From Phytophthora colocasiae (lineage: Eukaryota; Oomycota; Peronosporomycetes; Peronosporales; Peronosporaceae): a stretch of DNA of 64,000 nucleotides. Below are positions 9,426 to 60,914 of the stretch, one piece after another. Each line of letters starts with the position of its first letter. Positions within the stretch are counted from its first letter, which is position 1. The notes under the pieces were generated by a model. The model had not been told where the DNA came from. It was given only the letters and a program-made list of their open reading frames with translations, and did not search any database. The stretch spans positions 2,914,001 through 2,978,000 of the forward strand of contig JAGKQI010000100.1 in the NCBI GenBank assembly GCA_018806915.1, in the 5' to 3' direction. Made by a program: the position numbers and the translations under genes.

Positions 9426-10136
9426 TGTAACACGTCTACTAACACCTGCGTGCCGGCGGGTAATATAGTTGTCCGTGCTTCGCTTACGTTTTCTTGCCTG
9501 GGTTCTCCTTCAACGTCCGTCCAACACTCGATGGCTCGGTTCACCGCGCCGGTACGCCACTCGTCAGTGTGCGCCCCTATTTGTATTACTCTCTACGCTT
9601 CGTCCGTCCTACAGCTACAACTAACCGGGACTGTAAGGTGCGACTACCTACAGGTCAAACGACTTCGTACTGGGATAATGAGCTCCTCGCACCGTTCAAC
9701 AACAGTGAGCTCCACGCTTCTCACGTCCAATGACTGTGAGTCAACCAAGCTTCCTGCTAACCGTTCAACAACGAGTCAGCACGTCGCCTCCACACGTAGC
9801 CTTGCCCGAGCCTAGTCCACCTCGTCAGCCTCTCCGTTTAGCCATCGCCTTCAGCCGTCCGTTTCGTCCGTCCGTCCGTCCACACTAAAGTTGTGCTCTT
9901 CCGTGGCAAAAATCGAAGTGAGACCTCGCCGTAGCCTCCGTCCAACCCACTGGAAGATCGCCACGTGCTCACTTCCGGGCCTCTAGCTGGAACCCACGGG
10001 AGGTATCTAACAGCGACCGAGGTACTTCAACCACTCCGGCCGACCGCGCATCCCCCGAGGCCACTTCATCGTTCCGCGCCTCGTCCGTCGTTTCGCCTAG
10101 CCGCGCGAACCCTTCACGCATCGAGGATCCCTTACA
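9426..10136 (-). repeat. Gypsy-A 3' LTR (left copy)
   Basis: 711 bp, same length as the right copy and identical except for one base. Contains a (GTCC)n/(CGTC)n stretch near 9860-9885. It begins 10 bp after the pol stop codon in element orientation. Confidence 0.93.
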
Positions 10137-10146
10137 CGCCTTCTCC

Positions 10147-17951: not shown

Positions 17952-18004
17952 TTTCGTTCTTCGGGGTTTTCGTTGTCTAGAAATCAGCCCCTGTATGACC
18001 ACCA

Positions 18005-43752: not shown

Positions 43753-43914
43753 TGTAACGGGGTTACACGTACAAGTGGTTGTACCACTTGTAACTCTAAC
43801 AGTTAGGATAACTGTTAGAGGTTGGAAACGGGCCTCAGACCTTGGTGTGCTGTACACACCAATGGCTACATGGGCGAACCACATTATCGGGTGGTTCGTG
43901 TGCATTTGTGCATA
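43753..43914 (+). repeat. Element X 5' LTR remnant
   Basis: Begins TGTAACGGGGTTACACGTAC and matches, in reverse orientation, the first ~160 bp of the X 3' LTR at 47522-48262 (one is TGTAAC, the other TGCAAC). The rest of the LTR is missing and sequence jumps to the 81-bp segment at 43915. Built of successive inverted repeats: ACAAGTGGT/ACCACTTGT, CTAACAGTTA/TAACTGTTAG, CGAACCAC/GTGGTTCG. Confidence 0.8.
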
Positions 43915-43995
43915 TTATTGGTAGAAAGTAACGGGTTTCTACCAATCACTGAGCAGAGTTTCTGCCAACCACACGTTGGCAGACCCTTTAGAAAT
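43915..43995 (+). repeat. 81-bp segment S, copy 1
   Basis: TTATTGGTAGAAAGTAACGG ... CCCTTTAGAAAT. Also present at 47441-47521 with one mismatch (G/A). Contains two perfect hairpins: TTGGTAGAAA/TTTCTACCAA and TCTGCCAA/TTGGCAGA. Here it leads into gag. Confidence 0.85.
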
Positions 43996-44340
43996 CATTG
44001 GAGAAGCAGCGGTAGCGACGATGCTTCGTACGCTATCGCCGACAGAGCAACACGGTGTTGCTCTGGGGTACATTGTTAAGGAGCAACGAGATGTTGCTGC
44101 CTCGGTGGCTTCCCCGAAGCCACGCGTGGAGTCGTTGAAACTCCACGTGAGTACCTACACGGGGAAGGAGGACGAGACCCTCCTTCGGTGGCTTGTCGAA
44201 CTCGACACAGCCGTTGCGGCTCGACGTATCGTCGATCCGATGTCGAAGGTCGCGTTCGCCATGTCATGTCTTGGTGGACGTGCGAGGAGTTGGGCCTATG
44301 GGCGCCGACTCTCGGATCCTACGTGCTTCAGCACGTACGA
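43976..44340 (+). pseudogene. Element X gag, N-terminal part
   Basis: Reads ADPLEIIGEAAVATMLRTLS, then LHVSTYTGKEDETLLRWLVE and CLGGRARSWAYGRRLSDPTC, a typical Gypsy capsid-like gag (compare KLEGRAREWAL in Y). Interrupted at 44340 by insertion of element Y; the gag continues at 55157 on the minus strand after an inversion. Confidence 0.82.
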
Positions 44341-44753
44341 TGTAACGGGGTTACACGGCGCTGCGCGCGTTGGCTACAGTTGGTGTGGTATACACCATCC
44401 AGGTCACAAGTCACAGATCTGTGTACGACACATAGTGTTTCTCACACGTCACATATGTAGCCAGTTGCTGGCAGTTAGCTCAGAGCCACACATTGCATTT
44501 TGATTAGGATTTAGTATGCTAGATACTAAATCCGTTACATTTAGGATTAGGGCAATAAAGTCAATAAAAATCAGTTTGCATTTTACATAATTAGTGTTAG
44601 TTCCTTAATTATAGGAACACTGATTGTGAGAGTCCCGTATTTAGTGGACTACTTGGTTCTTGTATAGAACCGGAGGCTAGAGCCTTGCAAGCAGGACTCT
44701 ACGAGTCTACTAAACTTCCTCTGTGCCGTGCACACCTACGCAGCCCCGCTGCA
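44341..44753 (+). repeat. Element Y 5' LTR
   Basis: 413 bp, TGTAACGGGGTTACACGGCG ... CCGCTGCA. Its partner is 55163-55578 on the other strand (416 bp). Preceded by target duplication TACGA (44336-44340). Confidence 0.9.
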
Positions 44754-44804
44754 TCTGGTAGCACTTGTAGTCAATCCAACTCCTGAGTTGAAGACTGTTT
44801 CTCT

Positions 44805-45812
44805 GTGAGAATAGAGCCAGAAGCATACGCTCACTTGATTCCGAGTCAGCGGGACACGCCTAACAAGCTCACGTCCTTGCTGGGCCCAGAAGGTATGGCG
44901 CACCTTGCGTCCCAAGGGCCGGAGGCCGTCAACGCGCGCCTCGAGGCATTTGCCTCGTACGAAAACGCTCTCGTCGAGCACATTCAGTGGAATGTAAAAG
45001 GGGTTACCCCTGCTCCGAGAGCTAAGCCCGTCACGCTCAGCGTGAAGACCTTTCACGGGCACGAAGGAGAGAACCTCCTGTTGTGGACCCGAGAGGTCGA
45101 AATGGCCATGGGGGCCGCTATGCTTCAGTTGGAAGGCCAACGCGTGGCGTTCGCCATCTCTAAGCTCGAAGGGCGAGCACGAGAATGGGCCTTGACGTCT
45201 GGGACGTCGGTAGAAATGGCCTTCTCCACTTGGAGTGAGTTTAAGGCCAAGCTTACGCAAGTGTTTGCTCCACCTAACCAGGCGTATCGCGTGCGATCAC
45301 GCTTCCTTGCTTGCCGACAGGGCAAGAAGGACCTGGTGGACTATGTCCAAGAGCTGCGCACGCTCATTGCAGGCATGGCTGCCGACCCTCTACCTGAGGT
45401 GGTCACCGTGACCATCTTCATGGAAGGTTTACGAGCTGGCGTGGCCAGGACGGAGGGATTCCGTCAGAATCCTTGCACCTTCGAGGACGCTGTCAGCGTG
45501 GCATTGAATGCCGAACACAACTTTAAGTTGTCGAGGGTCGGTGCTAACAGCACAGGGTCCGGGGGACCCGAGCCCATGGACCTCAGCTATGCTGAAGATG
45601 AAGTAGCCGAGCTACGAGCTGCGGTGCAGCGTCTGAGCACCCGCCGGTGCTACACGTGTGGTAGCCCCACACATCTGAGGCCCAACTGCCCCCTGCGCAA
45701 AGAGCGCGCCGGCCAGAATGGCCGCAACCCTGCCGCGAGTCCCGCCTTGGGCTCTGCCCAGGGAAACGACGGCTCCCAGTTGACGCGGGGCGGTCTACTG
45801 GGGAAGAACTGA
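44805..45812 (+). CDS. gag: Element Y Gag
   Basis: About 335 aa; the open frame starts upstream of the first ATG (44894), so the original start is uncertain. Capsid-like region: FHGHEGENLLLWTREVEMAM, LEGRAREWALTSGTSVEMAF, RQGKKDLVDYVQELRTLIAG. One CCHC zinc knuckle near the end (CYTCGSPTHLRPNC). The stop is followed within 10 bp by the protease frame. Coding sequence contains many short inverted repeats (for example CTTGCC/GGCAAG at 45310-45326). Confidence 0.82.
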   Translation: MRIEPEAYAHLIPSQRDTPNKLTSLLGPEGMAHLASQGPEAVNARLEAFASYENALVEHIQWNVKGVTPAPRAKPVTLSVKTFHGHEGENLLLWTREVEMAMGAAMLQLEGQRVAFAISKLEGRAREWALTSGTSVEMAFSTWSEFKAKLTQVFAPPNQAYRVRSRFLACRQGKKDLVDYVQELRTLIAGMAADPLPEVVTVTIFMEGLRAGVARTEGFRQNPCTFEDAVSVALNAEHNFKLSRVGANSTGSGGPEPMDLSYAEDEVAELRAAVQRLSTRRCYTCGSPTHLRPNCPLRKERAGQNGRNPAASPALGSAQGNDGSQLTRGGLLGKN

Positions 45813-45820
45813 GTTCTGCA

Positions 45821-47440
45821 GTGCGTGAGAGGCACTGGGGTTTAGCCCCGAAGAGCTCCGTGCTCTTGAACACGGAACGTGTGCTCTTGCTGGTCGTCCA
45901 TGTGGACGTGAAGGGCTTCGAGAAGCCGTGGATCGTGTTGATCGATTCGGGAGTGTCTGGCAACTATGTCAGACGCTCCACCGTTGAGGGTAGTCAGCAA
46001 TATGCTGAGGCGCTTCGAGCGCGAAGAGGTGACACCGTCACTGTCCGTCTAGCAACGGGCGTCCGTGTCACGGCAGCCAAGGTCCCCATGGACCTGCGGC
46101 TGAAGTTCTTGGACTTCGACAGCGTAGAACGCTGCTTGGTCTTGGACCTGGATTCGAGGTACGACCTCATCCTTGGTATGGCGTGGCTGGAGCGCCACGA
46201 GCCATGGATCGATTGGAGGTCGAAGACCTTAGGTGCTACGCACTTCTCTCCTAGTGGAGCTTTGGCGATTCATGAACCCACCTCTGCTAGGAAGCAGAAG
46301 CGCTACTGGCGCGAGCATCGAGCCGAGTCGGCTATGATGCTGGAAGTCGGTGTGGCCGAGTTAGTGGACAGCACCGAGTGCGAGGACCGCAGTCCTGTTG
46401 AGCGCGTAGCGCTGGTTGGCAGTGAGTCAACGTGTGGGCAAGGCCCACGTAACCCCTGTGGGGCGGCACGTACTCCGCCGAGTGATATTGGTCGTGGACC
46501 AAATCGATCACTGAGTGTCTCTGACACTGGACCTGTTACGGTCATTGATTGTGCAGCGGCACGTACTCCGCTGAGCGGCATCGGTCGTCGACCGAATGGA
46601 CCGCAGAGTGTCACTGACACTGGGCCTGAAGGGGCCGAAACCTGTGCGACGGCACGTACTCCGTCGAGTGGACGTTTCGTCGGCTAGACGACGACGTCGT
46701 AAGGCCCTTTGGGCGAGACGCTCTGCGTCTGAGTCATCTGTGACGTCGAGGGTCGACGTACAGAAGGACTGCGGGCAGCTATACACTCTGGTTGATGGAG
46801 TGGACGGCAGTGCCGAAGGCAGCGTCCTGCTGGGCGATCTGCCGAGTGTTGACAAGATCCTTGAGCTAGAGGAGATGTCGTTCGCCGACTTTGGCGATGT
46901 CTTGAAGGCTGGCGAACTCGCCGAGGTGTCATCGTCCGACCTGAAGAGGAGTTAAACTCATCGTCCCTTGTTGACGAGTCCGTCTTGGCCGAGGTCAAGA
47001 AGGCGTTGAACGCCAGGAGTGGATCGGAGATCCTCAAGAATTCCTCGGATCCCTTCTACTTCCTGCTGAAGGAATATGGAGACGTTGTCTCGAAGGAGCC
47101 ACCGAGTGGCCTGCCTCCTGACCGAGGCGTTCGTCACGAGATCGACTTAGTTCCCGGAACTAAATACTGCGTGACACGGCAGTCGCCTCTTCCTAAAGAG
47201 CAATGCGACGTCATTGACGCCTTCTTCCGTGCGAAGCACGCGGCGGGTCTTGTGCGCGAGAGCAAGTCTCCGCACTCCGCGCCAACGTTCTGTGTCAGAA
47301 AGCCGAATGGCAAGTGGCGTATCGTTCACGCTTTTAACAAGCTCAACGCTGCCACGATTCCGGCGCAGACGCCGATTCCTAGGAAGGATGTTCTTCAGAA
47401 CAACATGGTGGGTTGCACCATGTACAGTGCGCTCGACTTT
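45821..47440 (+). pseudogene. Element Y pol, 5' half (protease and RT N-terminus)
   Basis: Protease at 45821-46687: IVLIDSGVSGNYVRR active site, then LGMAWLERHEPWIDW. Its C-terminal linker holds three degenerate ~34-aa repeats (ARTPPSDIGRGPNRSLSVSD ...). Frame changes near 46640 and 46945, then RT N-terminus (VRHEIDLVPGTKYCVTRQSP, SPHSAPTFCVRKPNGKWRIV) to MYSALD at 47437, where it stops abruptly. The missing continuation, starting VDGYYQLLM, is found at 59847 on the minus strand. Confidence 0.85.
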
Positions 47441-47521
47441 TTATTGGTAGAAAGTAACGGATTTCTACCAATCACTGAGCAGAGTTTCTGCCAACCACAC
47501 GTTGGCAGACCCTTTAGAAAT
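47441..47521 (+). repeat. 81-bp segment S, copy 2 (at inversion breakpoint)
   Basis: Second copy of 43915-43995, one mismatch, sitting exactly between the broken RT of Y and the reversed 3' LTR of X. Looks like a templated insertion made when the break was joined. Confidence 0.8.
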
Positions 47522-48262
47522 AGATAACAAACAGTTTTAGGAGGTCCATAATTGGCTAATGCCAAATTCAATAACAGTTCTCATTTTATGGTATTTTGCA
47601 GTTTAATTTAGTTATATTTGATTTAATTATACTTATTTAAATAAGTATACTTAAATTAAGTCTATTCTAATTGCACGTTTCCTCATACACGTAAGCGCAC
47701 GTGTTCGCCATCTAATAGGTCTAGGTAGACCCATTACATGTTTGTACGGTACGAACATCATGCAGTTTCCACCGTTTAAAAAATAATAAGGCAGCATATT
47801 TATGGTTCGGGTAAGTGACGTGTACGACACAAATGATACGTCTTGCGACTTCTACACACGCACTGACTATACCTATATGTTGGTAACCTGTTTTTGTGCT
47901 CATAACCAGGCCATGTCGCGAGCATCTACCTGGTGTGTATCGCGGGCAAGCGTGTACCTGTATTGTTAGGTAGTGCGCCTACTACTACGCGTGTTTCCCG
48001 TTGTAATGGCTTGTATTCACGATAAAACATTGACAAACGTTGATTGGTTAGAATCGTAATGTGCCGTGAAGTAGGATAAATATTCGCCAGGTAGGCGCCT
48101 TATGTACAAATGCACACGAACCACCCTATAATGTGGTTCGCCCATGTAGCCATTGGTGTGTACAGCACACCAAGGTCTGAGGCCCATTTCCAACCTCTAA
48201 CAGTTATCCTAACTGTTACAGTTACAAGTGGTACAACCACTTGTACGTGTAACCCCGTTGCA
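47522..48262 (-). repeat. Element X 3' LTR
   Basis: About 741 bp in reverse orientation, starting (minus strand) TGCAACGGGGTTACACGTAC and preceded by a polypurine tract (AACGGGGGGATGG at 48263-48275). Inner boundary well supported; the outer end is taken as the junction with segment S. AT-rich in its outer half, with a perfect TATACTTATTTAAATAAGTATA palindrome core near 47629-47651. Confidence 0.72.
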
Positions 48263-48363
48263 CCATCCCCCCGTTAAGATTCGACGTATCGGTCTCGACA
48301 CGTCAATCAACAGAACTTGACAAGACCGTCAAGTTCCCGAGAGAAATCCGAGTTCATTTCGCA

Positions 48364-49910
48364 ATGGACTCGCAAACGCCCACGTCTCCGTCCGCTTCTG
48401 CGGACGCGCAAGCCTCACCTGCTGCTTCTGCAGCAGGAGCAACAACCTCAGCAGTGCCCACTAGCATTGCTGCTTCCAGTGGTTCGACAGAGAAGCTCTC
48501 TGTCACCGACTACCATGCTCTCCACAAGGAGAAGCAAGCGAAGAAGAAGTCTTCTTCGCTAGCAGGGTTCAAACACCCTGCTGTTCCTCTCGAAGAACTC
48601 TTTGGAGAGGACTACGAAGACATCGTCGACTACGACTACGACGATGTCGAGGAGGGAGAGCTTGATGACAAGCCTCTCGCTCCCGTGTCTTCGTCTGAAG
48701 ACACGTCCAACCCACCCGTGGGGTCTCCACGACCTCGTGTTGAGGTCTCGGACGCTTCAAGCTCGAAGCGTCCGCGCAGTGATGACGAAGCGTCCCCCAT
48801 GTCGAGGGCGCTCACTGCTCCACGCACTGATCCTCCAGTGCGTGCACCATGGATGCCTACTGAGGCACAGATCCATGAGTGGTCCGGTGCTAGCTCACCG
48901 CCGAACCCGATACTGTTGTACTCATGCAACAATATCAACGACGACGACGTCGCCGCTAAGGTTGTCTTTGAGTCCGAGACTCAAAGACGCGACTACTATA
49001 TCGGGCTCTTCCATGAGCTCCGATATTATGCAGCGAAGAAGACTTCGCGCAAGAGCAAAGTGCCCGAGTGGCAGGCACTTTGTCAGTCGTGGAACGCCTT
49101 TGTTGATAACTTCAACAAAGAACCGAAGGCATATCGCGAGCGCGTTGCTGCGGCTCGCGATCGCTACTACACTTACACTACACGTGGTAAGTGTGAACGC
49201 CTCCATGATCAGTCCATGGAAGCGGGGATCCCATGTGCCGTTCCCTTCGGCACACCCTGCCCGTGTTGCCAACCCTTGGCAACACGTCTCTCAGAAAGTG
49301 ATCTCCTGGGGTACACGGTCGTCCGTGTACCCGATCACATCAAGGAACTCCGTGGTCGTATTGTGCCACGCGAAGCTCCGAGTGCTGTGGCTGACCGCAG
49401 CACTCCTCGTGCAGGGCTTACCCCTGCAAGTTATGGTGGGCTTCGTACGCCATCACCATTTCCGGAACGTCCTCCATCAGGACCTTCCACGGCTCTCATG
49501 TATCTCGATGGGGAAGAAATTCTCTCCAACGAATACGAAAACGAACCTTCGACAGTTCGTTCTCTTATGAGCCACGATTCGCTCCACAATCCAGTGGATC
49601 GCTCCACGCGCGTCGCGCAACGGCGGCGGAGGGGGTGGGAACACTCCCTCCGCATGGTCAACGCTATGACCATGACGATCGTGCCCTGCACCATCGAGTT
49701 GCTGCGCTGGAGCAGACACAGAGCGCTGAGATAGCTGCTCTGAAACAGGAGGTTCGTGTCCTCCGTGCTGAGGTCTGCGAGGCAGCTCAGACTGCCTCGA
49801 ACCTCTCGTCCGGTCTTGGGACGAGAGTGAACCGGTTGATCGACCGTGTCGACAGTCTCGAGAAGGCCTACCAGGCCTCTCGCACTCCTCAGTCGGACTA
49901 CCAACCCTAG
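48364..49910 (+). CDS. Element X antisense accessory ORF
   Basis: ORF on the strand opposite X gag-pol, between integrase and the 3' LTR. ATG at 48364; 456 aa in the first frame, then a one-base change in a G-rich stretch (about 49628) leads to a coiled-coil tail (RVAALEQTQSAEIAALKQEV ... NRLIDRVDSLEKAYQ) ending at 49910. N-terminus Ser/Ala-rich, then acidic (EELFGEDYEDIVDYDYDDVE), an NLS-like KRPRSDDE, and a conserved-looking middle (RRDYYIGLFHELRYYAAKKT; CPCCQPLATRL). No known domain. Element Y has an equivalent. Coding sequence is saturated with hairpins, e.g. AGCGAAGAAG/CTTCTTCGCT at 48537-48560. Confidence 0.65.
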
Positions 49911-49912
49911 GT

Positions 49913-51419
49913 AGTCCGTGCTGCATGTACGGCTTCAACCGCCCGACGTAGAAGGTCGGGTGGAGTCTCGTGCTGGACGGTATGTCCAGACGGGACGCGT
50001 TGCCGTGCCGTTCAAGTACCTTGAACGGCCCAATGAATCTTGGAGCAAGCTTGCTTGCTCCAAAGTCAGACACTGCATGTCTAGGTAGGTTTTGTGTAGC
50101 TAACAAAACTAATGAACCCTTTTCGAATTCATTTGTGTTGCCTCTACCAACAGTATCAGCGTTCAGCTTCTGTCGATCGACAGAAGCTGCGATAGCATCC
50201 TGGACAAACCGTATGACGGCTTGTCTTCGCTAGACAAAGTCTAGCGCACTCGAGCTGACTCCTATCAGCTTGTCGCCTTTGTCAGCAGCAGGCCCTGCCT
50301 GCTCGCTAGCATCTCTCATGTCTGTGCCCGGCACAGACATCGCGCGCTCGTTCCTGCTAAAACGAGACGTCGTACGCGTCACCGCAGCTGATAGTGTGCT
50401 GCTATCAGTTGCATTCTGCGGTTGTTCGGACGCAACCGTAGATCCCCCCCCCCCCCCCCCACTTAAGGAGGAAGCTACTCCGCCGAGCATGCTCGGCAAT
50501 CGTGGGCCTCATGGCGTTCACGCAGAACGGTTTATGCCCTGTCGAGGCATGCACCGAGTTGTTGATGGCAAACTCTGCCATCAACAAGCACTCGCTCCAA
50601 TGCGGGAACGAGTGAGCGTAGCTCTTCAACGTGTCACCCAGTACACGGTTGACACGTTCGGTCTGTCCGTCCGTCTGCGGATGATCCGCAGTCGACATTG
50701 ATAGCTGTGAACCAACCAAGAAGTGTAAACACTTCTTGCCAGAACCGCGCTGTGAAGCGTGGATCACGGTCGGACACAATGTCGAGCGGCATGCCATGGT
50801 GTTTGAACACCATGTCAACAAACAGTCGCGCAGTCTGCGCGGCTGTAACAGTAGCCGGGACGGCAGCAAGATGAACCATCTTGCTGAATCGGTCCACAAA
50901 GACAACGATGCCCGTCCTCCGCTTGCTGTCAGGCGGAAGACCGAAGACAAAGTCCATGGACATGGACTGCCAACACTCCGACGGAGTCGGTAGTGATTGA
51001 AGAGGAGCCTGCGAGAACTGCGCAGGCTTCACGCGTTGACAAACCTCGCAAGCACGTACGTACTTGCGCACCCACTTGTACTGGTGGTGCCAGTAGAAGT
51101 CACGCGTGAGAAGAGTGTATGTCTTCTCACGACCCGGATGCCCTGCCGTGGGGGCATCGTGATACTCGAACATGATCCTCAACCGGAGGTCATGATCATT
51201 CGGAACGACAATGCGATCCGCATTGTCGTCTACTGCACTGTACAACAGTAGGCCTTCGTGTACACGATAGCGGTGTACACGAGCTCGAAGGTGAGGGGTT
51301 AGCTTCCGACGTGCCACGTCGGAAGGTGCTGCGAGGAACTCCAGCAGCCCCATCGCGTCTGCATTCCTTGCATACGCGTTCTTCACGTCGTCAATCAACG
51401 TTGATTGACGACGGCACAC
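49913..51419 (-). pseudogene. Element X integrase and C-terminal domain
   Basis: Integrase zinc finger (HDAPTAGHPGREKTY ... CEVCQRVKP), core with SMSMDFVFGL and IVSDRDPRF, frameshift near 50720, then TADHPQTDGQTERVNRVLGD with the catalytic Glu. A C17 tract (50444-50460) interrupts the frame. The C-terminal beta-domain follows (LAPRFIGPFKVLERHG ... LHPTFYVGRLKPYMQ) to about 49915, tail-to-tail with the antisense ORF. No chromodomain seen, unlike Y. Confidence 0.85.
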
Positions 51420-51865
51420 TTGTCCTCACGACGCCAACGCTGTTGGCGTCGACCGTCTCCGCATAGTCAGGTCGACGCGATAACGCGTCGGCCACTACAT
51501 TGAGTCTTCCGGGTTTGTACTCTACCCGGAAGTTGTACTCCGCGAAGAAGGACAACCATCTCGCCATACGGTGCGAGATGTGCGGCGACTTAATCGCCGT
51601 ACATAATGATGCGTGGTCTGTATAGACCACGAACGGTCTACTCCCAAGTAGATACACTCGGAACTTTGCGAGTGCATACTTCATGGGAAGGAGCTCCCTT
51701 GTCATGTACGGGATAGTTACGCTCAGCTGGCTTCAGCTGACGCGATTGATAATAGACTACACGATCACGAAGGGCGTGATCGTGTTGCATCAATGCACAT
51801 CCGATTGCAAAGTCGGATGCATCCCACACTACGTGGAATGGACGATCTTGGTCCGCTACAGCCAA
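51391..51865 (-). pseudogene. Element X RNase H
   Basis: HVVWDASDFAIGCALMQHD ... YYQSRQLKPAERNYPVHDK, a frame change near 51695, then LPMKYALAKFRVYLLGSRPF and VVYTDHASL to YKPGRLNVVADALSRRPDY. Standard Gypsy RNase H motifs, one frameshift. Confidence 0.82.
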
Positions 51866-53760
51866 GATCGGCGCTTCCAGTCAAGCCCTGCTTGACTGCA
51901 CCGGAATGCATCCTCGCACTCCGGTCGTCCAAATCCACTCAGCTTCTTTCTTAAGAAGCTGTGACAACGGGCGAATCTTGCCCGCATAGTTGTCCACGTA
52001 CTTGCACAAGTACGTGGCCCAAAATGAGCGAACTGCCTCAGTTCCTTCACATTGGATGGCGTGGGCCATTCATTGATCACTCTGACCTTCTCTGGGTCAG
52101 GGCGCACGCCGTCTTTCCCCACGAGACACCCCAGCACGGGTATCTCGCTCGCCCCGAAGATACACTTCTTCAGGTTCGCATAGAGCTTATGTTTCCTCAA
52201 AAGCTCTAGCAGCTTCCGGAGATGCAGCTTGTGCATCTCAATGTCCGTCTTCCCGTTCACAGCCCGGCTGTGGACGAACACGTCGTCGAAGTAGCTCGGT
52301 GCGAAGTCGCGCACCGAGCGCAATAGATGTGTCACGCATCTATTGAACGTCGCAGGGGCGTTCTTAAACCCCTGTGGCATTACGAGCCACTCCCAAAGCA
52401 TACCGCTTGGAGTGCTTACCGCTGTGAGAGGGATGTCCCTCTCACGCATGAGGATCTGATAGAATCCATCACGCAGATCTAGAGCACTGAAGATAGTGCC
52501 CAAGGCCATCGAATCGATGATAACATCTTTTCGCGGTATCAGCGTCTGCGCCGGTATCGTCGCATCGTTCAACTTGTTGTACGCATGAACGATGCGCCAG
52601 CCGCCCTGTGGTTTCTTAACACAGAACGTTGGAGCACTGTGCGGGGACTTTGACTCCCGCACTTGACCTGCAAGACGACGACTTTCAAAGAAGTCGTCGA
52701 TCGCTTGCACTTGTTCACGCGGCAGTGGCCACTGCCGTGTAACACAGTACTTCGTGCCCGGCACGAGATCAATCTCGTGCTGAACGCCCTTGTCCTTCGG
52801 AAGCTCCGAAGGAATCTCGTCCGGGAGTACATCCTTGTACTCCCGCAGAATCTCGTAATAGGGACTCGACCTCAACGAGTCCCAACTCTGCTCCTCGAAG
52901 CGTTGCTTCTTGGTCTTCGCACTGAGGGGGTCATCTCCCTCAGTGATGCCATCGACAACGAGCTGCTTCAGCTCCTCGGCTTCGCGATCCACTCTCTCGA
53001 TATCCGAGAGAATGCAAATTTGTTCGATGCGTCCATCGTACAAGTCCCGCGCGAAGCGCTTCCAACTCATCGTTGGAAGTGCGGTCAACGCCGACGCACT
53101 CGTCGGCGGATTCTCCAACCGCATCCTTTGGTACTGTAATCCAGTACCAGTGCGTGTCAAGACGTTCAACGTCTCGACACTCGGTGTCTGCCCTGCAGAT
53201 ACACCCTCCTCAGTCACGGACTGAGGCTCACACAGCTCACTGAGCAGGTGCCGCGCGCTCTGATACTGTACCGCAGTATCAGTTCGTGTCAGGACGTTCA
53301 ACGCCTTGACACTCGGTGTCTGTACCGCAGACACACCCTCCACAGTCACGGACTGGGACTCGCAAAGCTCTCTGAGCTTGCGCCGCGAAGGTCTGCCATG
53401 GAGCTCAGCTCCAGGCGCTCCGCGTCCAAGGCATCCCACCTTGGACGGGGCTTTATCGCAATCGTCAGCGGATTCCTTCCGCTGACTCGCACATTCAACC
53501 ACTGCTTGTGTGCCGCTCATCCCGTGCAGCACCGCTGTACGTGAGCACGCAGGTTCTTCGGGTGCTGGACGTTTGCAACCGCCAGCACCTCCTGCTGCGC
53601 AGTCGGTTCCCTGAACCGCTGCGCCTCCGTCCGCTCCCGGAGCGGATGAAGCAACTGCAGCGTCGACTCCCGGAGTCGACGTGCTCTCGCTAGCTTCCAG
53701 CGCTAGCGAGTGTTCGCTTATACACGTATCGTCAGCTCCCAGGGCTGATGCACGATCGCT
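51866..53760 (-). pseudogene. Element X reverse transcriptase and repeat linker
   Basis: RT: VQHEIDLVPGTKYCVTRQWP, SAPTFCVKKPQGGWRIVHAY, IFSALDLRDGFYQILMRERD, catalytic SYFDDVFVHS (near 52280), FKNAPATFNRCVTHLLR. Frame change near 52030, then YLCKYVDNYAGKIRPLSQLL. The linker to protease (53100-53760) contains a two-copy repeat (LCESQSVTVEGVSAVQTPSV / LCEPQSVTEEGVSAGQTPSV) and a Gly/Ala/Pro-rich part whose DNA is a chain of CTCCCGGAG-type hairpins. Confidence 0.87.
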
Positions 53761-53771
53761 AGTTCCCGGAA

Positions 53772-54698
53772 CTAGCAGCGAATGTTCGCCGCTCCCGGAG
53801 CTGATGCACGTCCCAGAACTAGCAGTGACGCGCCTGTGGCGTCAGCTCCCAGAGCTGACGCACGCCTTTCGGTTCCCCGAATTTTATTTATTTCTTCAAG
53901 TCCCGGAGTTGACGCGACGTCGTCGGCGCGACCCTTGGGGGCTTGAAGTACCTCCAAGGATACCGGTAATACCGGTATTTTACCTTCTCTCAGGTGAATC
54001 GCATTCACCTGACCATCACTCATGTGACCGCGACCCTTCGGCTCAGATTTCTGAGTCGACACACATTTTCTCACAACGACTCTCGGAGTCGTTGATGGTC
54101 GCCGGCGGCGATCGGAGGCAGCGGCGGCCGCTGCTGCCTCAACTGGGGATCCACATGCACCGGCCGGTGCATGTGCAGCACTGACAGGGCCATCGCTCTC
54201 TGTCGCGCATGTGTTGTTGAAGCGTACGAGCGTACGCTTCTCCCAGTTGATCACCGGGTCATGCCGTGCAAGCCACGGCATGCCTAATACCAAGACGATA
54301 AGGTCTTCTACAAACGTCCTTCGTTTGTAAGAGAAGCGCACACGGACCACGCGCTTCTCACTCCTTACGGTGGCACCTGTTGCTAACCGCATCTCCAACA
54401 CACCGCGAAGCGTGTCGGTCTCTTCGAAGTCAAGCCTTCGAAGACTTACCTGTCGAACAAAGTTGTTCGACGCGCCCGAGTCCACCAGGGCACGAAGAGA
54501 GTTCACTCTCTTCGACATCACGTTCAGGATGACAAGGCCTGGCTTGTCATCTTGCATCTCGCAGCGAGAAACCTTCTCGTTGGGGACAGCAGTCCTCATC
54601 GTCGCGTGTGCGAGTTCAACACGCGAGACTGCATCACCAGTAGGACGCCCCGCGTCTACTGGTCCTTGGCGTTTTTTTAACGCCCGCCCGCTGTGCAC
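53772..54698 (-). pseudogene. Element X aspartic protease region
   Basis: LRALVDSGASNNFVRQVSLR (active-site DSG), then VEDLIVLVLGMPWLARHDPV and INWEKRTL, as in other oomycete Gypsy pol N-termini. The downstream part is low complexity (AAAAAAASDRRRRPS; RASALGADATGASLL). It ends in a stop at 53772, while the continuing frame leads into the RT linker. Confidence 0.83.
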
Positions 54699-55157
54699 TT
54701 GCGTGCATAGTGACCGATGTTACCACACGGGTAACATCGAACCTTGACGTTCTTACGCTGCTGTTGGCCAGCAGTCGTAGCACTCGAGAGGTCCATAGGT
54801 TCCGGACCTCCCGTCTTCGCAACAGGACGCGCCCGCTTCGGCCCGTTCGCATGGAGTTTAGCTTGACGTCGGCTAAACTCCTCTTACATCGCAAGGCTGA
54901 TCGCCTCCTCGAGAGTATTCGGATACTCTCGGAAGAGATACGTCTTGACGGGACCATCTCTTAGTCCCTTCATGAACGTGACGACCTTGGTCGCCTCGTC
55001 GATCAGGTTGGCCACTATGTTCGATACCAAGTATCGAGCACGCTGGGCAAAGTGTGAACATCATCCTTGCCCTGTTGCAGATCGAGAAACTCCGCTCTCG
55101 ATCTGAACTCGTTCTTCAGGGAGCTCAAACACAAGCTTAAGCTCCTCTTTGAACACC
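54674..55157 (-). pseudogene. Element X gag, C-terminal part
   Basis: Continues the gag broken at 44340: after the TACGA duplication it reads EVFKEELKLVFE, frameshift, NEFRSRAEFLDLQQGKDDVH, frameshift, RARYLVSNIVANLIDEATKV, VTFMKGLRDG ... TLEEAISLAM, a TAA stop, and the zinc knuckle CYPCGNIGHYARKC. Decayed by two frameshifts and one stop. Confidence 0.83.
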
Positions 55158-55162
55158 TCGTA

Positions 55163-55578
55163 TGCAGCTGGCAGGGCTGCGTAGGTGTGCACGGCACATA
55201 GGAAGTTTAGTAGACTCGTAGAGTCCTGCTTGCAAGGCACTAGCTCCGGTTCTATACAAGAACCAAGTAGTCCACTAAATACGGGACTCTCACAATCAGT
55301 GTTCCTATAATTAAGGAACTAACACTAATTATGTAAAATGCAAAACTGATTTTTATTGACTTTATTGCCCTAATCCTAATGTAACGGATTTAGTATCTAG
55401 CATACTAAATCCTAATCAAAATGCAATGTGTAGCTCTGAGCTAACTGCCAGCAACTGGCTACATATGTGACGTGTGAGAAACACTATGTGTCGTACACAG
55501 ATCTGTGACTTGTGACCTGAATGGTGTATACCACACCAACTGTAGGCAAGGCGCGCAGCGCCGTGTAACCCCGTTACA
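55163..55578 (-). repeat. Element Y 3' LTR
   Basis: 416 bp in reverse orientation, TGTAACGGGG...GCTGCA on the minus strand, preceded by a polypurine tract (GGTGGGGGAGGG, 55579-55590). The outer flank on the minus strand is TACGA (55158-55162), the same 5-bp duplication as left of the 5' LTR (44336-44340). It differs from the 5' LTR by a 4-bp indel near the end and scattered substitutions. Confidence 0.9.
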
Positions 55579-55872
55579 CCCTCCCCCACCAAATCGTGGA
55601 TACGGAGTATCTACAACTGCAGACATAACTGCCTTGTCAAGGCCTGTCACCGGCAACTTTCCGATAAAAGAAATCTCTCAACGAGAGTGCGCGTGCGCGC
55701 TGGCTCAACGAGCACATTCTCTAATTCTCCCCAGCGAGCCTACCCTCCTCGGGTGTCCCGTGTTCAGGCGTCTACGCCTCAGCGCCTCAGCGCTTTCCGG
55801 ACTGAGCCCTCGGCTCCTATCACGCTCTCCGTTTCGGAGTATTTCGCGGGGTCTCGCCTTCGCTACGGAGCG

Positions 55873-57405
55873 ATGTTCAAGGCCAGCCCGACTTCAAGTG
55901 GTAGCGGTGGCTCACCCTTCGAGTACACGACAGCGTCGCCGACGCGCGACCCACGTCGCTCTCCTACGGAGGAAGGCGAGGTCGAAGTGGACTACGAGGA
56001 GTCCGAACAGGGCGATACCCTGCGTCTCCTGCTCCTGCGAGCTCTCGGACGACTCGATCTGAGCTGCGCTCTCCACGTGATCCGCGTCGGTACTCAATTC
56101 CTCGGCAGCTGCGTCAGCCCAATCCATTCCCGGAGGGACCTTCGAGCCTCGTGCTCAACGCGCGTTGCTGCAGCGCACCACCACTTCCTGCTCGCGATGA
56201 GCCAGAGTCGGTCAGGGGCGTCGAAGACGCGATCACCAACCCACTGGATGAGGCGCAGGAGGCCTCTATGAGCGGTGCTCCAGAGTCCCGTCGACCGGTC
56301 CAACGGGGCATCGGGGGGACTTCGTCGCGGCGCGACTACGGCTTCGAGCCTCGTGATCCTGCCGAGCAGGTGAAGCAGTTGATGACACAGACCAACTTTC
56401 ACGGTTACGCCATAGGCGCTCCACCTCGCACGGTGGCTGAGACTCAGCAACGGCAAGGGCTCCATGAGCGCTTCCTGACCCCGCAGGTGTGCACACTCGC
56501 CGAGTATCGGCAACGCTTAGATAAGCAACGGCGACGGGAGTCTGTACCTCAGATGAGGACTTATCCACTCCTTCTCCAAACAGGAAAGACTACCCGGGAC
56601 TACATGGTCCATGTGGCCACCTGGGCCGAGGCTTCACGGAAGCTCGCGTCGTTTGATCGGCTCATGGAGAGCACTTCCGAGGTGGACGTCCGCCTCGCTC
56701 GAGGTCTACTCTTCCAGTACGCGAAGCTACGCGAGCGGCCCGGTCGCTTTCCTCGTCATACGACGGCGGTGGCTCCCGCTTCGCAGGACGCTCCTCTAAT
56801 CTCCGAAGGAGACTCACTGGCTATGCCAGCCACGGACCAGAGCCTGAGCTCGGCTGCTAGTCCGTCAGCTTCTCACACTAGTGGTGAGAAGCGGGTGTCG
56901 ACCGAGTGGTCGACCTCGAGCCCTTCGGGCGCCTCCGATCTTCGCGATCAAAAGCGTCCACGACGTCAGGGCAGTCCTGCCTCAGGGGCCCTTCAAACTC
57001 CCACGAGTTTTGGGAATGAGGATATCCACGCCACTTCACCAGATACTGGTTTTGACTACGGTGGCGACGCCGCGCCATCAGGCGCTCCACGGTAATGGGG
57101 TCCCCTGCACGTCGAGCAACGGTGGAGGATGCCGATTAGCTGCTGAACGAAAAACTCGATGAGTGTGACGAGCGTTATCTGTCGCAGCGTGCCTGGTATC
57201 AAATCGATCGCTCGATCGATACTCTCCAGAGTCAGACTCAGTCCCTTCAAGGGAACGTGGAGAGTGTTTGGCATTCGCATGCCCGTCTCGCCCACGACAT
57301 GGAGGAGATCGAGAGCCGAATGGCTCGGCTCGAAGGGCCTCAGTCTCTGACCGCTCGCCTGCATCAGCAGGAGCTTCCAGCTCGCTGGAGCTGCGGGGTC
57401 AGGTG
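55873..57405 (+). pseudogene. Element Y antisense accessory ORF
   Basis: Counterpart of the X antisense ORF, on the strand opposite gag-pol. ATG at 55873 (MFKASPTSSGSGGSPFEYTT), acidic EEGEVEVDYEESEQGD, frame change near 56050, then a long stretch to 57095 (DYGFEPRDPAEQVKQLMTQT, TLAEYRQRLDKQRRRES, SRKLASFDRLMESTSEVDVR, QKRPRRQ). A TAA at 57093-57095 is followed in another frame by a coiled coil (DRSIDTLQSQTQSLQGNVES, HDMEEIESRMARLEG) to 57405. Same order as X: disordered acidic start, middle domain, coiled-coil end. Broken by at least two frame changes. Confidence 0.55.
56878..57130 (-). pseudogene. Element Y chromodomain
   Basis: C-terminus of pol: ITVERLMARRRHRSQNQYLV, KWRGYPHSQNSWEFEGPLRQ, DCPDVVDAFDRED, a clear chromodomain of the chromovirus type that targets integration to modified histones. 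Frame differs from the integrase tail, so a frameshift lies between. It lies antisense to the accessory ORF. Confidence 0.82.
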
Positions 57406-58719
57406 ACGTTGCTGCTGCAGATGACGCAGCCTGGGCGTGTGTCGTCGGCGCCAGCGCCTCCGCACTCACCCCCGCGGGGTTCCGATATGGCTTAAGCAAG
57501 CCGACGTAGAACACGGGGTGTGTTCGCATCCGCTTTGGCAAGTCAAGCGTGTATGCCAGGCCCTTCTTGGCCACGACCGTAAACGGTCCGATGAAGCGCG
57601 GACGCAATTTCGTCTTAAAGACGCTCGACACTGCATGTGTAGGTAGGTTCTTAGCGTTTAATAAAACTTGGTCACCGACCTTAAATTCCCACACATTGCC
57701 TCTACCTTTTGCATCAGCTTGTTCCTTCTGAACGTCTTGGCTTTCAGCCATCGCGTCACGCACACGGCGTAATACGCTCAATCTCACCGAGAGGAAGTCA
57801 TCGACTTGTTTACGCACAGCAGAAGGGCTGATATCAGCAAGCTCGGAGTCGAGCGACGGCACAGCCTCTCCCCAAGCCCAAGGCCACCGCGTGGCGGCGT
57901 GAGCGGGACGCGCGGATGCGCAAGGCCGTTCACGTAGAACGGAGTGAAGCCTGTCGAGGCGTGCACCGCATTGTTCATTGAGAACTCAACGAGAGGGAGC
58001 ATAGCGCTCCAACGCTTTGGCGTTTCAGCGCATATGCTGCGGAGGATGTCCTCCAAAACGCGATTGACACGTTCAGTCTGACCGTCAGTCTCCGGATGAT
58101 CCGTCGTGGACATATCCAGTCGAGTGCCAAGCACTTTAAAGACGGACGTCCAGAAGTGACCCGTGAAACGGGGATCTCGATCCGAGACAATGGTCTCTGG
58201 CAGCCCATGCTGGCGGAAGACCCGATCGATAAAGATCGTCGCTGTACCAGCGCCATCGACGGTGTCCGGCACAGCCGCTAGGTGAGCCATCTTGCTCAGA
58301 CGGTCAACAAAGACCACAACGCCCGTGTTGCCTGCCGAATCCTTCGGCAGGCCAAACACAAAGTCCATACTCATGGACTGCCAACACCCAGAGGGTACAG
58401 GCAAGCTCGCCAAAGGCGCTGCCGCATGCGGTGAGGGTTTAACCCGCTGACACGTCTCACACGTGTGCACATATGTGCTGACCCACTTGTACATCTTTGG
58501 CCACCAGTACATGGAGCTCACCGAGCTGTAGGTCTTCTCACGACCGAGGTGGCCGCTTGTGGGCGTGTCGTGGGCCTCATAGAGGATACGATACTTCAGG
58601 TCCTCATCGTGAGGAACCACCACACGTGGTGGGTCATCCTGACCCGTGCTGTAGTACAGCAGACCACCTTCCAGGCTATAGCGCTGGAGTCTCGCCTTTA
58701 GGCGTCGTGACAGAGTCAC
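57131..58719 (-). pseudogene. Element Y integrase and C-terminal domain
   Basis: Integrase with an HHCC finger (HDTPTSGHLGREKTY ... CETCQRVKP), catalytic acids in SMSMDFVFGL, IVSDRDPRF and ETDGQTERVNRVLED, intact to about 57900. A frame change then gives SLDSELADISPSAVRKQVDD and the beta-domain (LRPRFIGPFTVVAKKGLAYT, THPVFYVGLLKPYRN). The linker to the chromodomain is low complexity. Confidence 0.87.
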
Positions 58720-59847
58720 CTTTGGTCCTTAAACTCATCGCTCCCTAGCGCTTGAAGCAGCGCGACACAAGAGTCGTCCTGAGCGTACGCTGCTCGAACC
58801 ATGTCCGTCACGGACGACGTCACTGAGGTGACATGAGATAACTCATAGTCCGGGCGACGTGATAGCGCGTAAGCGAGGACGTTCTGCCTGCCAGGCTTGT
58901 ACTTCACCTCGAAGTTATACTCCACAAAGAAGGAGAGCCATCAGGCCATCCTCTGCGAGAGGTGAGGCGACTGCGTCGCTGTGCGTAGTGACGCATGATC
59001 CGTATAGATCACAAACGGCTTGGAGCCGAGCAGGTGAACCCTGAATTTGACGAAAGCGTACTTCATCGCAAGTAGCTCCTTGTCATGAACTGGATAGTTC
59101 TTCTCAGCAGCCTTGAGCTGTCGAGACTCAAACGCAATGACGCGTTCGCACCCTTCGGCGTCCGCTTGTAGCAAAGCACTGCCTATGGCAAAGTCCGAGG
59201 CGTCACAGACGACGATGAACGGACAATCGGGGTCTGGCAACGCCAGTATCGGTGCCTGAAGCAGGCTATCCTTGATACGAGTGAACGCACTCTCGTGCTC
59301 AGCACGCCATACCCATTCGGCATCCTTCTTAAGGAGATCCATCAGTGGCCGAGCCAACTCAGCGTAGTTCTCGCTATACTTGTGCAAGTAGTTGGCCAAG
59401 CCCAGCCACTTACGCAAGTCCTTCTGGTTCAAGGGAACCGGCCAGTCCACAATGGCCTTGACCTTTGCTGGATCAGCACGAAGGCCATGCTTCCCAATGA
59501 AGCACCCTAGGAAGGATTTCTTCCGCGCCAAAGACGCACTTGTCTGCGTTGGCGTACAATTTGTTCGTGCGCATGCACTCGAGCACAGCTCTCACGTGTT
59601 CCACGTGTACCTCGACGTCAGTCTTGCCGTGTTCGGCCTGACTGTGGACGAACACGTCGTCAAAGTACGTCTGTGCGAATGCCCGCAGGGGCCTGAACAA
59701 CTGCGTCACTAGACGATTGAACGTTGCAGGCGCATTCGACAGCCCTTGGGGCATGACGAGCCATTCCCAGAGCATACCGCTCGGGGTGCTTACCGCTGTA
59801 AGCGGAATATCACTGGCTCGCATGAGCAACTGATAGTAGCCATCGAC
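58716..59847 (-). pseudogene. Element Y pol, middle part (RT C-terminus, RNase H)
   Basis: Begins VDGYYQLLMRASDIPLTAVS at the inversion breakpoint, exactly where the + strand half (ending MYSALD) stops. Catalytic TYFDDVFVHS near 59655; frame change near 59510; connection and RNase H domains (LGLANYLHKYSENYAELARP, VVCDASDFAIGSALLQADA, YTDHASLRTA). An in-frame TGA at 58938-58940 replaces the Arg codon found in X (RMA*WLSFF versus RMARWLSFF). Confidence 0.87.
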
Positions 59848-60053
59848 CCAATTTATACGAATTGTGGTTTTTGGAGGCTGCTATTAGAGGCTTTTAGCAT
59901 AACCTAGTAGGTTTCGCCCACAACCACAGCAGATGGCTTACTTCACCGGGTTTCAATGTATCTTTAGCACAACCGACAGATGAACACTTCTCGGTCATAT
60001 GGCAAGGTCTCATTTTAGGATTAGCGCTGCAACGATTTAGTGAACGAGAAACG
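59848..60053. other. Right inversion junction and flank
   Basis: Unique sequence after the breakpoint. The motif TTTTAGCATAACC (59898-59910) is weakly echoed in reverse near 62315-62330 (GGTTAGGCTAAAA), possibly degenerate ends of Harbinger-3. Confidence 0.35.
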
Positions 60054-60914
60054 ATGGTGATTCGCTTCTCGGAAGAAATGGATAAGTGAGCTCATGCGCG
60101 AGGTAATCAAGCAGAAGCCATACGCTGCCAAGTACGGGAGGCTGGTGCGGTGTGGGTTCAAGTTGCAAAGTGTGTTAGTGCAGCTATATAAGCTGCTGTA
60201 ATCGACAAGCAGGTGCAGGATCGTGTGCGTTTATTGAAGAAGAATTGGCGAGCAGGAGAGCTTCGGGAGCTACCGTAGGAAGTGGTATCGAAGAGGCCAA
60301 GGATGCAGCAAACGAGCAGAGTTACTATGATAGCTTACCCGGTCTTGTAGGGCAGTACGTATCCCTAGAAAAGACTTCAAGGCTGAAAAACGTCACAAAA
60401 AGCAAAGAAGCAAGCTGAAGAGACCCAAACTAACCTGTGCGCTTCTCAAATTGTGTCTGAGGCTATAACACGTCGCGCTCTCCGAGGTGATGGTATTCTA
60501 TCAAGCGGCTCGTCTTCGGAGAGCGACGGTAATACTGCTTCGGTGGCGTCAACTACGTCAGTCAGCACATCGGCAACACCAACTAAAGCGTTGAGAACAG
60601 GACGCCGTAAGAGCGTCTTCCAACTGGAACTTGACAGGCAAGATAAACGAATTCGACTCGACACAGAGCTGCGTCGAGAGCAGTTTGATCGACAGATGCA
60701 GCTACAGCAGCAACAACATGCAGAACGACTGGCTTTTGAAAGAGAGCAACACGCGAATCGGCTAGCATTTGAGCGTGACCTGGAACAAGCTCGCGAGCTT
60801 GCTGAAGAACGGCTTCATCGGGCACGAGAAGAAGCCGAGGAACGAAACAGGCAGCTGATACTGCAGTGCGTAAAGATTTTCAGCAGGTCGCTCAACAGCA
60901 ACAGCAATAACTAA
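60054..60914 (+). pseudogene. Harbinger-3 SANT-like partner, decayed
   Basis: MVIRFSEEMD then, in shifted frames, ELMREVIKQKPYAAKYGR, WVQVAKCVSAAI and QVQDRVRLLKKNWRAGELRE, a SANT-like domain. From 60453 an open 153-aa frame gives a Ser-rich linker and a long Gln/Arg/Glu coiled coil (RQMQLQQQQHAERLAFEREQ). Several stops and frame changes. Convergent with the transposase. Confidence 0.65.

What the first reader, a model, noticed from the sequence alone, without database searches (positions are those of the whole stretch)
48263..55157. Gypsy elements X and Y are saturated with short inverted repeats, through coding sequence
Seen: nearly every 20-30 nt is a perfect or near-perfect hairpin. Examples: a 28-bp perfect palindrome at 51386-51413; 12-bp arms 50559-50570/50576-50587; 10-bp arms 51303-51312/51316-51325, 50717-50726/50729-50738, 51105-51114/51122-51131 and 48537-48546/48551-48560; three hairpins back to back in Y at 58617-58660. 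They occur in both LTRs, gag, linkers, conserved pol and the antisense ORF, where arms must be accommodated by synonymous codons (e.g. GAGAGGGA/TCCCTCTC near 52435, coding RERDIPL in X while Y has RASDIPL and no hairpin). Gypsy-A, the DNA transposons and host genes show no such density. X is denser than Y. I know of no described retroelement with this property. Possible causes: selection for a structured genomic RNA, a defence against or substrate for small-RNA processing, or a template-switching RT that copies arms.
Basis: partly seen in the sequence, partly recalled or inferred. Interest (0 to 1): 0.92.

Follow-up and report, generated by a model that had tools for sequence, protein, structure and literature searches.

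The report
Jumping genes written as hairpins
Two young families of retrotransposon in a Phytophthora-like genome carry tiny perfect hairpins along most of their length, even inside conserved enzyme genes, and in one of them the hairpins look protected by natural selection; such a layout is not known to me from any jumping gene.

Summary
X (48101-55162) has 14.3 perfect hairpins per kb (arm >=8, loop <=15) against 0.22 in dinucleotide shuffles. Its five ORFs exceed every codon- and protein-preserving shuffle made. Gypsy-A, three host genes and 20 other RT loci show nothing comparable. Y differs in kind: 5-bp stems with 3-nt loops, 9- to 14-fold enriched.

New facts. Each family has its own ruler: pairing ends at span ~14 nt in Y and ~25-27 nt in X, and starts only outside a 3-nt loop. 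No protein cost was seen. X fills 31 of at most 67 synonymously possible arm-8 slots in RT and IN; two controls fill 0 of 129. Among 30 X copies, private variants hit stems nearly as often as elsewhere, but inherited ones avoid them: at RT third codon positions 1 per 107 stem sites against 28 per 227 others. GU and AC mismatches are tolerated alike. Some loops exist in both orientations.

Best reading: hairpins maintained by selection on both strands' transcripts, probably as a shield against small-RNA silencing (the shield is inferred). Rivals: palindrome-making reverse transcription, sense-RNA compaction. Y shows no such selection signal.

The parts
48101..55162 (-). Gypsy X: part of the 3' LTR, antisense-ORF region, IN, RNase H region, RT, protease; 14.3 hairpins (arm>=8) per kb
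43753..44343 (+). X 5' LTR and leader, separated from the rest of X by Y (LTR measured as 461 bp in the copy on C3, L082/L085)
47441..47738 (+). second part of the X LTR, displaced
51856..53532 (-). X ORF with RT (PF00078, E 1.5e-25); its end reads out of frame with the homologues in this copy
50634..51419 (-). X integrase ORF (PF17921, PF00665)
49477..50106 (-). X integrase C-terminal SH3-like ORF (PF24626)
53772..54698 (-). X protease ORF (PF08284, just under cut-off)
48364..49734 (+). X antisense ORF, 456 aa, no Pfam match; hairpin-rich (12 arms >=8 against 0.4)
44341..47440 (+). Y 5' half: terminal repeat 44341-44749, gag 44805-45812, ORF 45821-46687 (protease by position, not by a family match), start of RT; 5-bp/3-nt hairpins
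55171..60200 (-). Y 3' half: end of RT, IN 57784-58719, antisense ORF 56151-57095 (+), terminal repeat 55171-55578; 5-bp/3-nt hairpins; the limit near 60.2 kb is approximate
51386..51413 (.). 28-bp perfect palindrome
51759..51785 (-). hairpin whose loop core occurs as GAAGGGC (26 copies) and inverted GCCCTTC (2 copies, the window among them)
   Evidence: columns 2945-2971 converted to window coordinates
51429..51451 (-). hairpin with loop alleles GCT/AGC and GCA/TGC (two inversion pairs)
52219..52239 (-). hairpin with loop AAGG inverted to CCTT in one copy
53990..54012 (-). hairpin with loop alleles GCG/CGC
46457..46628 (+). tandem duplicate in Y; of 26 stem pairs 20 same, 4 compensated, 2 one-sided between the units
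53119..53382 (-). 132-nt tandem duplicate in X; of 37 stem pairs 28 same, 2 compensated, 6 one-sided, 1 changed on both sides and unpaired in one unit

Best explanation
X and Y are two young, multicopy Ty3/gypsy families of a Phytophthora-like oomycete whose nucleotide sequence has been moulded, in coding regions largely through codon choice, into a chain of short Watson-Crick hairpins with a family-specific maximum span (about 14 nt in Y, about 25-27 nt in X). Shown: the hairpins, their rulers, the 3-nt minimum loop, no visible protein cost in X RT, and for X an inherited-variant deficit in stems that private variants hardly show. Inferred: the hairpins are kept by purifying selection on copies that replicate; they must form on both strands' RNAs, because inherited G-U and A-C changes are tolerated equally, at about half the outside rate, while mismatches that break both strands are tolerated at a quarter. 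The proposed job is a shield against the host's small-RNA silencing: the target RNA is folded, and a small RNA cut from either strand tends to fold on itself.
For: Density against dinucleotide and codon shuffles; filled synonymous slots, arm 8: RT 20 of 47 and IN 11 of 20, against Na/Ca 0 of 41 and Gypsy-A 0 of 88. Pairing begins outside a 3-nt loop and stops at a family-specific span. X stems: private variants 0.85 of outside, shared by 2-3 copies 0.49, by >=4 copies 0.52, in the RT core 0.13; RT third positions shared 1 per 107 against 28 per 227, per-site Fisher p 5e-4, private 12 and 35, shared/private Fisher p 0.013. Gain:loss of pairs in X is 14:112 for private (n 403) and 14:23 for shared variants (n 159), p 8e-4. 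X shared/private relative to outside: GU 0.54 (p 0.08), AC 0.50 (p 0.04), other 0.24 (p 8e-5). Compensated pairs in X stems of arm >=7: 6 against 0-2 with the partner slid; arm >=8: 3 against 0-1; duplicates inside each element. 25-nt windows fold at -4.9 (X) and -4.5 kcal/mol (Y 3' half) against -3.3 in one shuffle each, Gypsy-A -2.8 against -3.1, similar on both strands. Phytophthora has 21- and 25/26-nt small RNAs from transposable elements (passages of PMC3804510, PMC3522703). Packed folding is held to protect viroids from silencing (passages of PMC3185485).
Against: No small-RNA or structure-probing data. Y shows no inherited-variant deficit (ratios 0.84, 1.29, 1.38, each p >0.5) and no gain:loss difference (30:56 private, 23:28 shared, p 0.28); its compensation is weak (4 pairs against 0-1 slid). 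Almost half of X is outside hairpins, so a shield would be leaky. In P. infestans LTR elements carry about twice as many 21- as 25/26-nt RNAs, and small RNAs map along whole Gypsy elements (passages of PMC3522703). Gypsy-A and the 20 other RT loci do without hairpins, so a shield is not needed by every element. The X span limit is gradual. The GU and AC numbers are small (13 and 14 shared).
Confidence: 0.4

Rival explanations
1. Mutation, not selection: the element's reverse transcriptase folds its growing strand back and copies a neighbouring arm, so quasi-palindromes turn perfect over time; the family-specific span is a property of each RT.
For: Watson-Crick pairing with no GU preference; strand symmetry; reverse-complement loop alleles in 6 of 111 X hairpins, 4 of them multi-nucleotide, plus one more seen by eye, suggest that strand switching at these hairpins happens; compensated pairs exist.
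Against: Among 20 clusters of changes carried by at most 3 X copies, 1 lengthens a hairpin, 5 shorten one, 12 leave it, 2 were flagged as inversions, one of these only a 2-base change. Private single changes gain pairs about as expected at their sites, 14 against 12.0. If stems were corrected by copying, about half of the missing inherited variants should reappear as compensated pairs (my reasoning); 11 variant sites are compensated against 35 uncompensated. Conserved RT is about as dense as the rest. No clear 5'/3' arm asymmetry in protein agreement, 0.735 against 0.764. Loop flips at short hairpins are known from chloroplast DNA (recalled; only lists papers holding the words), so they need no special RT.
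Confidence: 0.27
2. [quoted passage not shown]
For: Whole-element structure through coding sequence, low-C loops on the sense strand (pooled p 2e-5), minimum loop of 3 nt.
Against: GU is not preferred over AC: among internal mismatches shared by >=4 copies X has AC 23, GU 14; Y has AC 7, GU 10. The sense strand's folding advantage over antisense (-1.6, -2.2, -3.0 kcal/mol) is no larger than in Gypsy-A (-5.8) or the Na/Ca gene (-3.4). Next to no excess in X at loops above 15 nt.
Confidence: 0.18
3. DNA-level hairpins or cruciforms, formed in single-stranded cDNA or in the integrated copy and used in replication or recombination.
For: Strand symmetry, inverted loops.
Against: Private stem mutations accumulate almost as outside, 0.85, so nothing seems to maintain the hairpins after insertion; no arm motif was noticed, but none was searched for beyond base composition.
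Confidence: 0.12
4. Chance, composition or assembly artefact.
For: None found.
Against: Shuffles; at least 40 scored copies of each family on many contigs, of which L002 and L033 were counted against shuffles with the same excess; arms >=8 fall to 0-1 per 250 nt in the flanks beyond X in the fetched copies, except where a second X piece follows (L086).
Confidence: 0.01

Closest known systems
Ty3/gypsy (Metaviridae) LTR retrotransposons of Phytophthora; best protein hits in P. citrophthora ('Pol polyprotein from transposon 297'), P. cinnamomi, P. cactorum, P. ramorum
   Same: RT, integrase with H2C2 finger, protease-like ORF, gag with capsid domain in Y, LTR
   Different: no member with hairpins along the whole element is known to me or turned up in the listings; whether the Phytophthora relatives share the hairpins could not be tested (protein only)
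[quoted passage not shown]
   Same: structure along the genome through coding sequence, suspected role in escaping host recognition
   Different: retroelement in DNA; perfect Watson-Crick arms; maximum span; no GU preference; loops that invert
Viroids and structured HIV-1 targets that resist RNA silencing (passages of PMC3185485)
   Same: folding as a shield from RISC (proposed here)
   Different: viroids are non-coding and compactly folded as a whole; here only hairpins under ~27 nt, also inside genes
Small hairpin-associated inversions in chloroplast DNA (recalled; papers listed, none read)
   Same: loop of a short stem occurs in both orientations
   Different: there single hairpins; here a retroelement carrying over a hundred
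Quasipalindrome correction by template switching (recalled; no retrotransposon case seen in the 8 papers listed of 49)
   Same: would yield perfect arms
   Different: predicted arm-copy events not seen in 30 copies

Membership tests
Ty3/gypsy LTR retrotransposon | reverse transcriptase | tested here: met
   PF00078 E 1.5e-25 in X; X and Y DNA align at 67% over 1012 bases from RT on
Ty3/gypsy LTR retrotransposon | integrase | tested here: met
   PF17921 and PF00665 in X; in Y PF17921 is met and PF00665 misses its cut-off by 0.3 bits
Ty3/gypsy LTR retrotransposon | protease and gag | tested here: inconclusive
   Y gag PF03732/PF19259 met; X protease PF08284 0.8 bits under cut-off; X gag not examined; Y protease ORF not scanned
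Ty3/gypsy LTR retrotransposon | long terminal repeats | tested here: met
   X 461 bp, 99.8% identical in the C3 copy; Y a terminal repeat of about 410 bp, 97.6%
Ty3/gypsy LTR retrotransposon | pol order with integrase after RT/RNase H | tested here: met
   ORF positions on the minus strand
GORS-like structured genome | folding excess over sequence-order controls along the genome | tested here: met
GORS-like structured genome | structure in the sense RNA, GU pairs accepted | tested here: not met
   GU no better tolerated than AC
GORS-like structured genome | plus-strand RNA virus genome, structure shown by probing | not testable with these tools
   element is a retrotransposon; no probing data
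Silencing-resistant structured RNA | reduced cleavage or small-RNA loading | not testable with these tools
   no small-RNA data
Template-switch palindromes | new arm-copy events among copies | tested here: not met
   1 lengthening against 5 shortening among 20 clusters in X; Y 2 against 1 among 18
Template-switch palindromes | loop inversion alleles | tested here: met
   6 of 111 X hairpins, 4 of them multi-nucleotide; 0 of 107 Y hairpins

The most novel reading that the evidence does not exclude
X and Y are 'silencing-proof by coding': selection has rewritten the synonymous sites of a retrotransposon so that a small RNA cut from either strand folds on itself and its target is folded too. The family rulers (spans up to ~14 and ~25-27 nt) would then reflect the guide lengths of the host's silencing machinery.
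Probability: 0.2. Interest if true: 0.96.

Novelty: new variant of a known kind. Interest (0 to 1): 0.88.

Why it matters
If selection wrote these hairpins, synonymous sites of a selfish element carry a second, physical code that is as constrained as its amino acids, and the element answers host defence with the shape of its own sequence, with no need of a suppressor protein. If instead reverse transcription makes them, a mutational process that builds palindromes has been overlooked in LTR elements. Either way the rulers, the strand symmetry and the loop flips make the question testable with sequence data that probably already exist for Phytophthora species.

Tried and rejected
Sense-RNA GU signature: looked for and not found; sense folding energy is lower than antisense in X and Y, but as much or more so in Gypsy-A and the Na/Ca gene, so I do not use it. 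Conservation of hairpin positions between X and Y: of 29 X centres 7 lie within 2 nt of a Y centre (3.2 expected), 3 exactly (0.33 expected); most hairpins are therefore not shared, and stems are not better conserved than the rest between families (X stems 320 of 514 identical, other sites 850 of 1361). Arm overwriting at protein level: none seen (homologues are the 120 listed of 1470, 121 alignments; the last part of the ORF is out of frame in this copy and was not removed). First stem-constraint tests used a stem definition biased towards constraint (paired in >=60% of copies) and an inclusive one biased against it (0.030 against 0.040 for >=4 copies); both were replaced. Relatives from other species as DNA: viral contigs gave none, phages no match; genome contigs gave one locus of 27% identity in a bacterial MAG, unrelated. 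The rate of reverse-complement loop alleles expected by chance was not computed; two of the six differ only in one central base and could be point mutations. The 20 survey loci were picked by me from the 150 matches, with 6 shuffles each; the highest short-hairpin count was L072, 12 against 6.0. Only the 40 best copies of 882 and 874 candidates were scored and 30 fetched per family, the window among them, so copies nearest the query are over-represented; mapped rows cover 3090-4000 of 4000 columns in X and 1747-4000 in Y. Two further X copies (L088, L089) were compared with the window only: 0 of 321 and 1 of 415 stem positions differ, against about 4% outside; this comparison leaves out the window's own private stem changes and so overstates the contrast.
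Full report
What is there. The window (C9:2914001-2978000 of a 92.5-Mb genome of 105 contigs) carries two Ty3/gypsy elements with conserved pol domains. X reads on the minus strand from 55162 to 48101; its LTR is 461 bp, 99.8% identical between the two ends of the C3 copy, so that copy is young. The 44341-47440 and 55171-60200 elements are best read as the two halves of one Y: the first ends inside RT near where the second resumes, both carry the same terminal repeat in opposite orientation, and in 6 places that I found by eye in the two lists of 40 the gag and IN pieces lie about 3 kb apart on one strand. Y sits in X, and an inversion has turned the right-hand part. Each piece searched has 40 scored full copies, 95-100% alike, among 476-882 candidates.

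The observation. The examples quoted are exact. In 2-kb bins the count of arms >=8 is 26, 28, 27 and 19 across X against 0.2-0.8 in shuffles, and 0-6 elsewhere in the window, the 6 being in the bins at 42001 and 44001, which hold the X 5' LTR and Y. Per kb: X 14.3 against 0.22; Y has few long arms (1.0) but 8.0-11.6 stems of >=5 bp with a 3-nt loop against 0.8-0.9. Codon shuffles that keep the protein and its codon usage do not reproduce this in any of the five X ORFs tested; the Y integrase, gag and PR-position ORFs exceed all shuffles for 5-bp stems; Gypsy-A, Na/Ca exchanger, glycerol kinase and a carrier do not. Twenty other RT-bearing loci of this genome have 0 arms >=8 in 19 cases and 1 in one. 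The excess falls away beyond the element.

Anatomy. X has next to no excess at loops above 15 nt (the largest is arm 8 at loops 31-100, 12 against 5.0); the Y 5' half has a modest one at loops 16-30 (arm 5: 52 against 28.5), as nested stems would give. Aligned on their centres, hairpins begin to pair at a span of 5-6 nt (a loop of 3-4) and stop at a family-specific limit: in the Y 3' half pairing falls to chance at span 15, in the Y 5' half by about 18, in X gradually at 25-28. The 3-nt minimum means that folded hairpins, not dyads bound by a protein, are the likely unit. Counting all placements that synonymous codons would allow, X uses 20 of at most 47 non-overlapping arm-8 slots in RT and 11 of 20 in IN; the Y integrase uses 1 of 28, Y gag 0 of 29, Na/Ca 0 of 41, Gypsy-A 0 of 88. 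For the 5-bp/3-nt class Y integrase uses 12 of 31 and Y gag 17 of 37, X RT 15 of 57 and X IN 7 of 22, against 3 of 48 (Na/Ca) and 2 of 87 (Gypsy-A). So each family fills about two fifths to a half of the slots of its own kind; Y leaves the long kind nearly empty, while X also has part of the short kind, some of it inside longer stems. Amino acids in X RT arms agree with the homologues as well as the rest (0.735 for the 5' arm, 0.764 for the 3' arm, 0.748 outside).

Maintenance. Thirty copies of a 4-kb piece of X, the window included, were mapped on the window. Private changes strike stems nearly as often as other sites (ratio 0.85); changes shared by four or more copies are halved in stems, and are 0.13 of outside in the RT core. 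At third codon positions of the RT core, variants shared by two or more copies are 1 per 107 stem sites and 28 per 227 other sites, private ones 12 and 35: third positions in stems are as fixed as first and second positions (2 per 211). Private changes shorten hairpins 112 times and lengthen them 14 times (n 403); shared ones 23 and 14 (n 159) (p 8e-4). Six X pairs are compensated, against 0-2 with slid partners; duplicates inside each element show 4 (Y) and 2 (X) more. For Y the same tests show nothing significant, either because 5-bp stems are individually weak or because they are no longer kept.

Strand. Inherited G-U and A-C changes in X stems are both about half as frequent as outside (13/36 and 14/42 shared/private; p 0.08 and 0.04), other mismatches a quarter (8/69; p 8e-5). 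Internal mismatches shared by four or more copies are AC 23, GU 14, other 15 in X and AC 7, GU 10, other 34 in Y. A-C on one strand is G-U on the other, so each transition spares one strand and harms one, while a transversion harms both: the graded, symmetric cost is what a need on both strands predicts. Low C in sense loops is the only hint of one strand.

Loop flips. In 6 of 111 X hairpins both a loop and its reverse complement occur among copies; four are multi-nucleotide (GAAGGGC/GCCCTTC, AAGG/CCTT, GCG/CGC, GCT/AGC with GCA/TGC), and one more (CTGGG/CCCAG) is seen by eye in L030. None of 107 Y hairpins does. Strand switching at long hairpins thus seems real in X, but it does not by itself make arms.

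Mechanism. I take selection on hairpins of both strands' transcripts as most likely, and protection from small-RNA silencing as its likeliest reason: Phytophthora has 21- and 25/26-nt small RNAs over transposons (passages of PMC3804510 and PMC3522703), folding of target RNA is a known shield (passages of PMC3185485, on viroids and HIV-1), and a need for folded target and folded guide would explain the symmetry. The X span limit near 25-27 nt may or may not be linked to the 25/26-nt class; in P. infestans LTR elements have more 21-nt RNAs, which speaks against a simple link. Shown: density, rulers, synonymous placement, deficit of inherited stem variants in X, symmetry, flips. Inferred: selection as the cause of the deficit, the two-strand need, the silencing shield. 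The strongest rival is fold-back copying during reverse transcription; the near absence of new arm-making changes and the low number of compensated against one-sided sites count against it, but 30 copies are few.

Novelty. Searches of the held library (titles, counts and starts of abstracts seen, passages read in PMC3804510, PMC3522703 and PMC3185485, abstract and outline of PMC3950689) showed no report of such an element in the lists returned; the lists are capped and most subscription journals are not held, so this is weak evidence of absence.

Noticed in passing
43753-60200: Y is inserted in X (junction 44343/55162) and an inversion has split Y inside RT (about 47440 and about 60.2 kb); a further piece of X LTR at 47441-47738 is displaced.
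   Followed up: partly
48364-49734 (+) and 56151-57095 (+): Both X and Y have a long ORF antisense to the element downstream of integrase, 456 and 314 aa, without Pfam match; it could make the antisense transcript that the strand symmetry asks for.
   Followed up: no
10000-18000: Gypsy-A has fewer hairpins than its own shuffles (arm >=6: 1.2 against 2.6 per kb), as if it avoided them.
   Followed up: partly
50444-50461: Run of about 18 C within X between the integrase ORF and the integrase C-terminal ORF.
   Followed up: no
L032 (C3:228146-229148 region): 4-kb stretch 99.7% identical to the window over the Y part, far closer than the other 28 fetched copies: perhaps a duplicated or allelic segment.
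   Followed up: no
about 53300-54000, X linker: Several hairpins of this stretch share a TCCGGGA/TCTGGGA-like core with different arms (by eye).
   Followed up: no
44341-47440 and 55171-60200: Y stems prefer a C-G pair next to the loop and G at the outer 5' end (no significance test made).
   Followed up: no
1502-4262: Two neighbouring mitochondrial-carrier-like ORFs of similar sequence, probably a tandem duplication (by eye).
   Followed up: no
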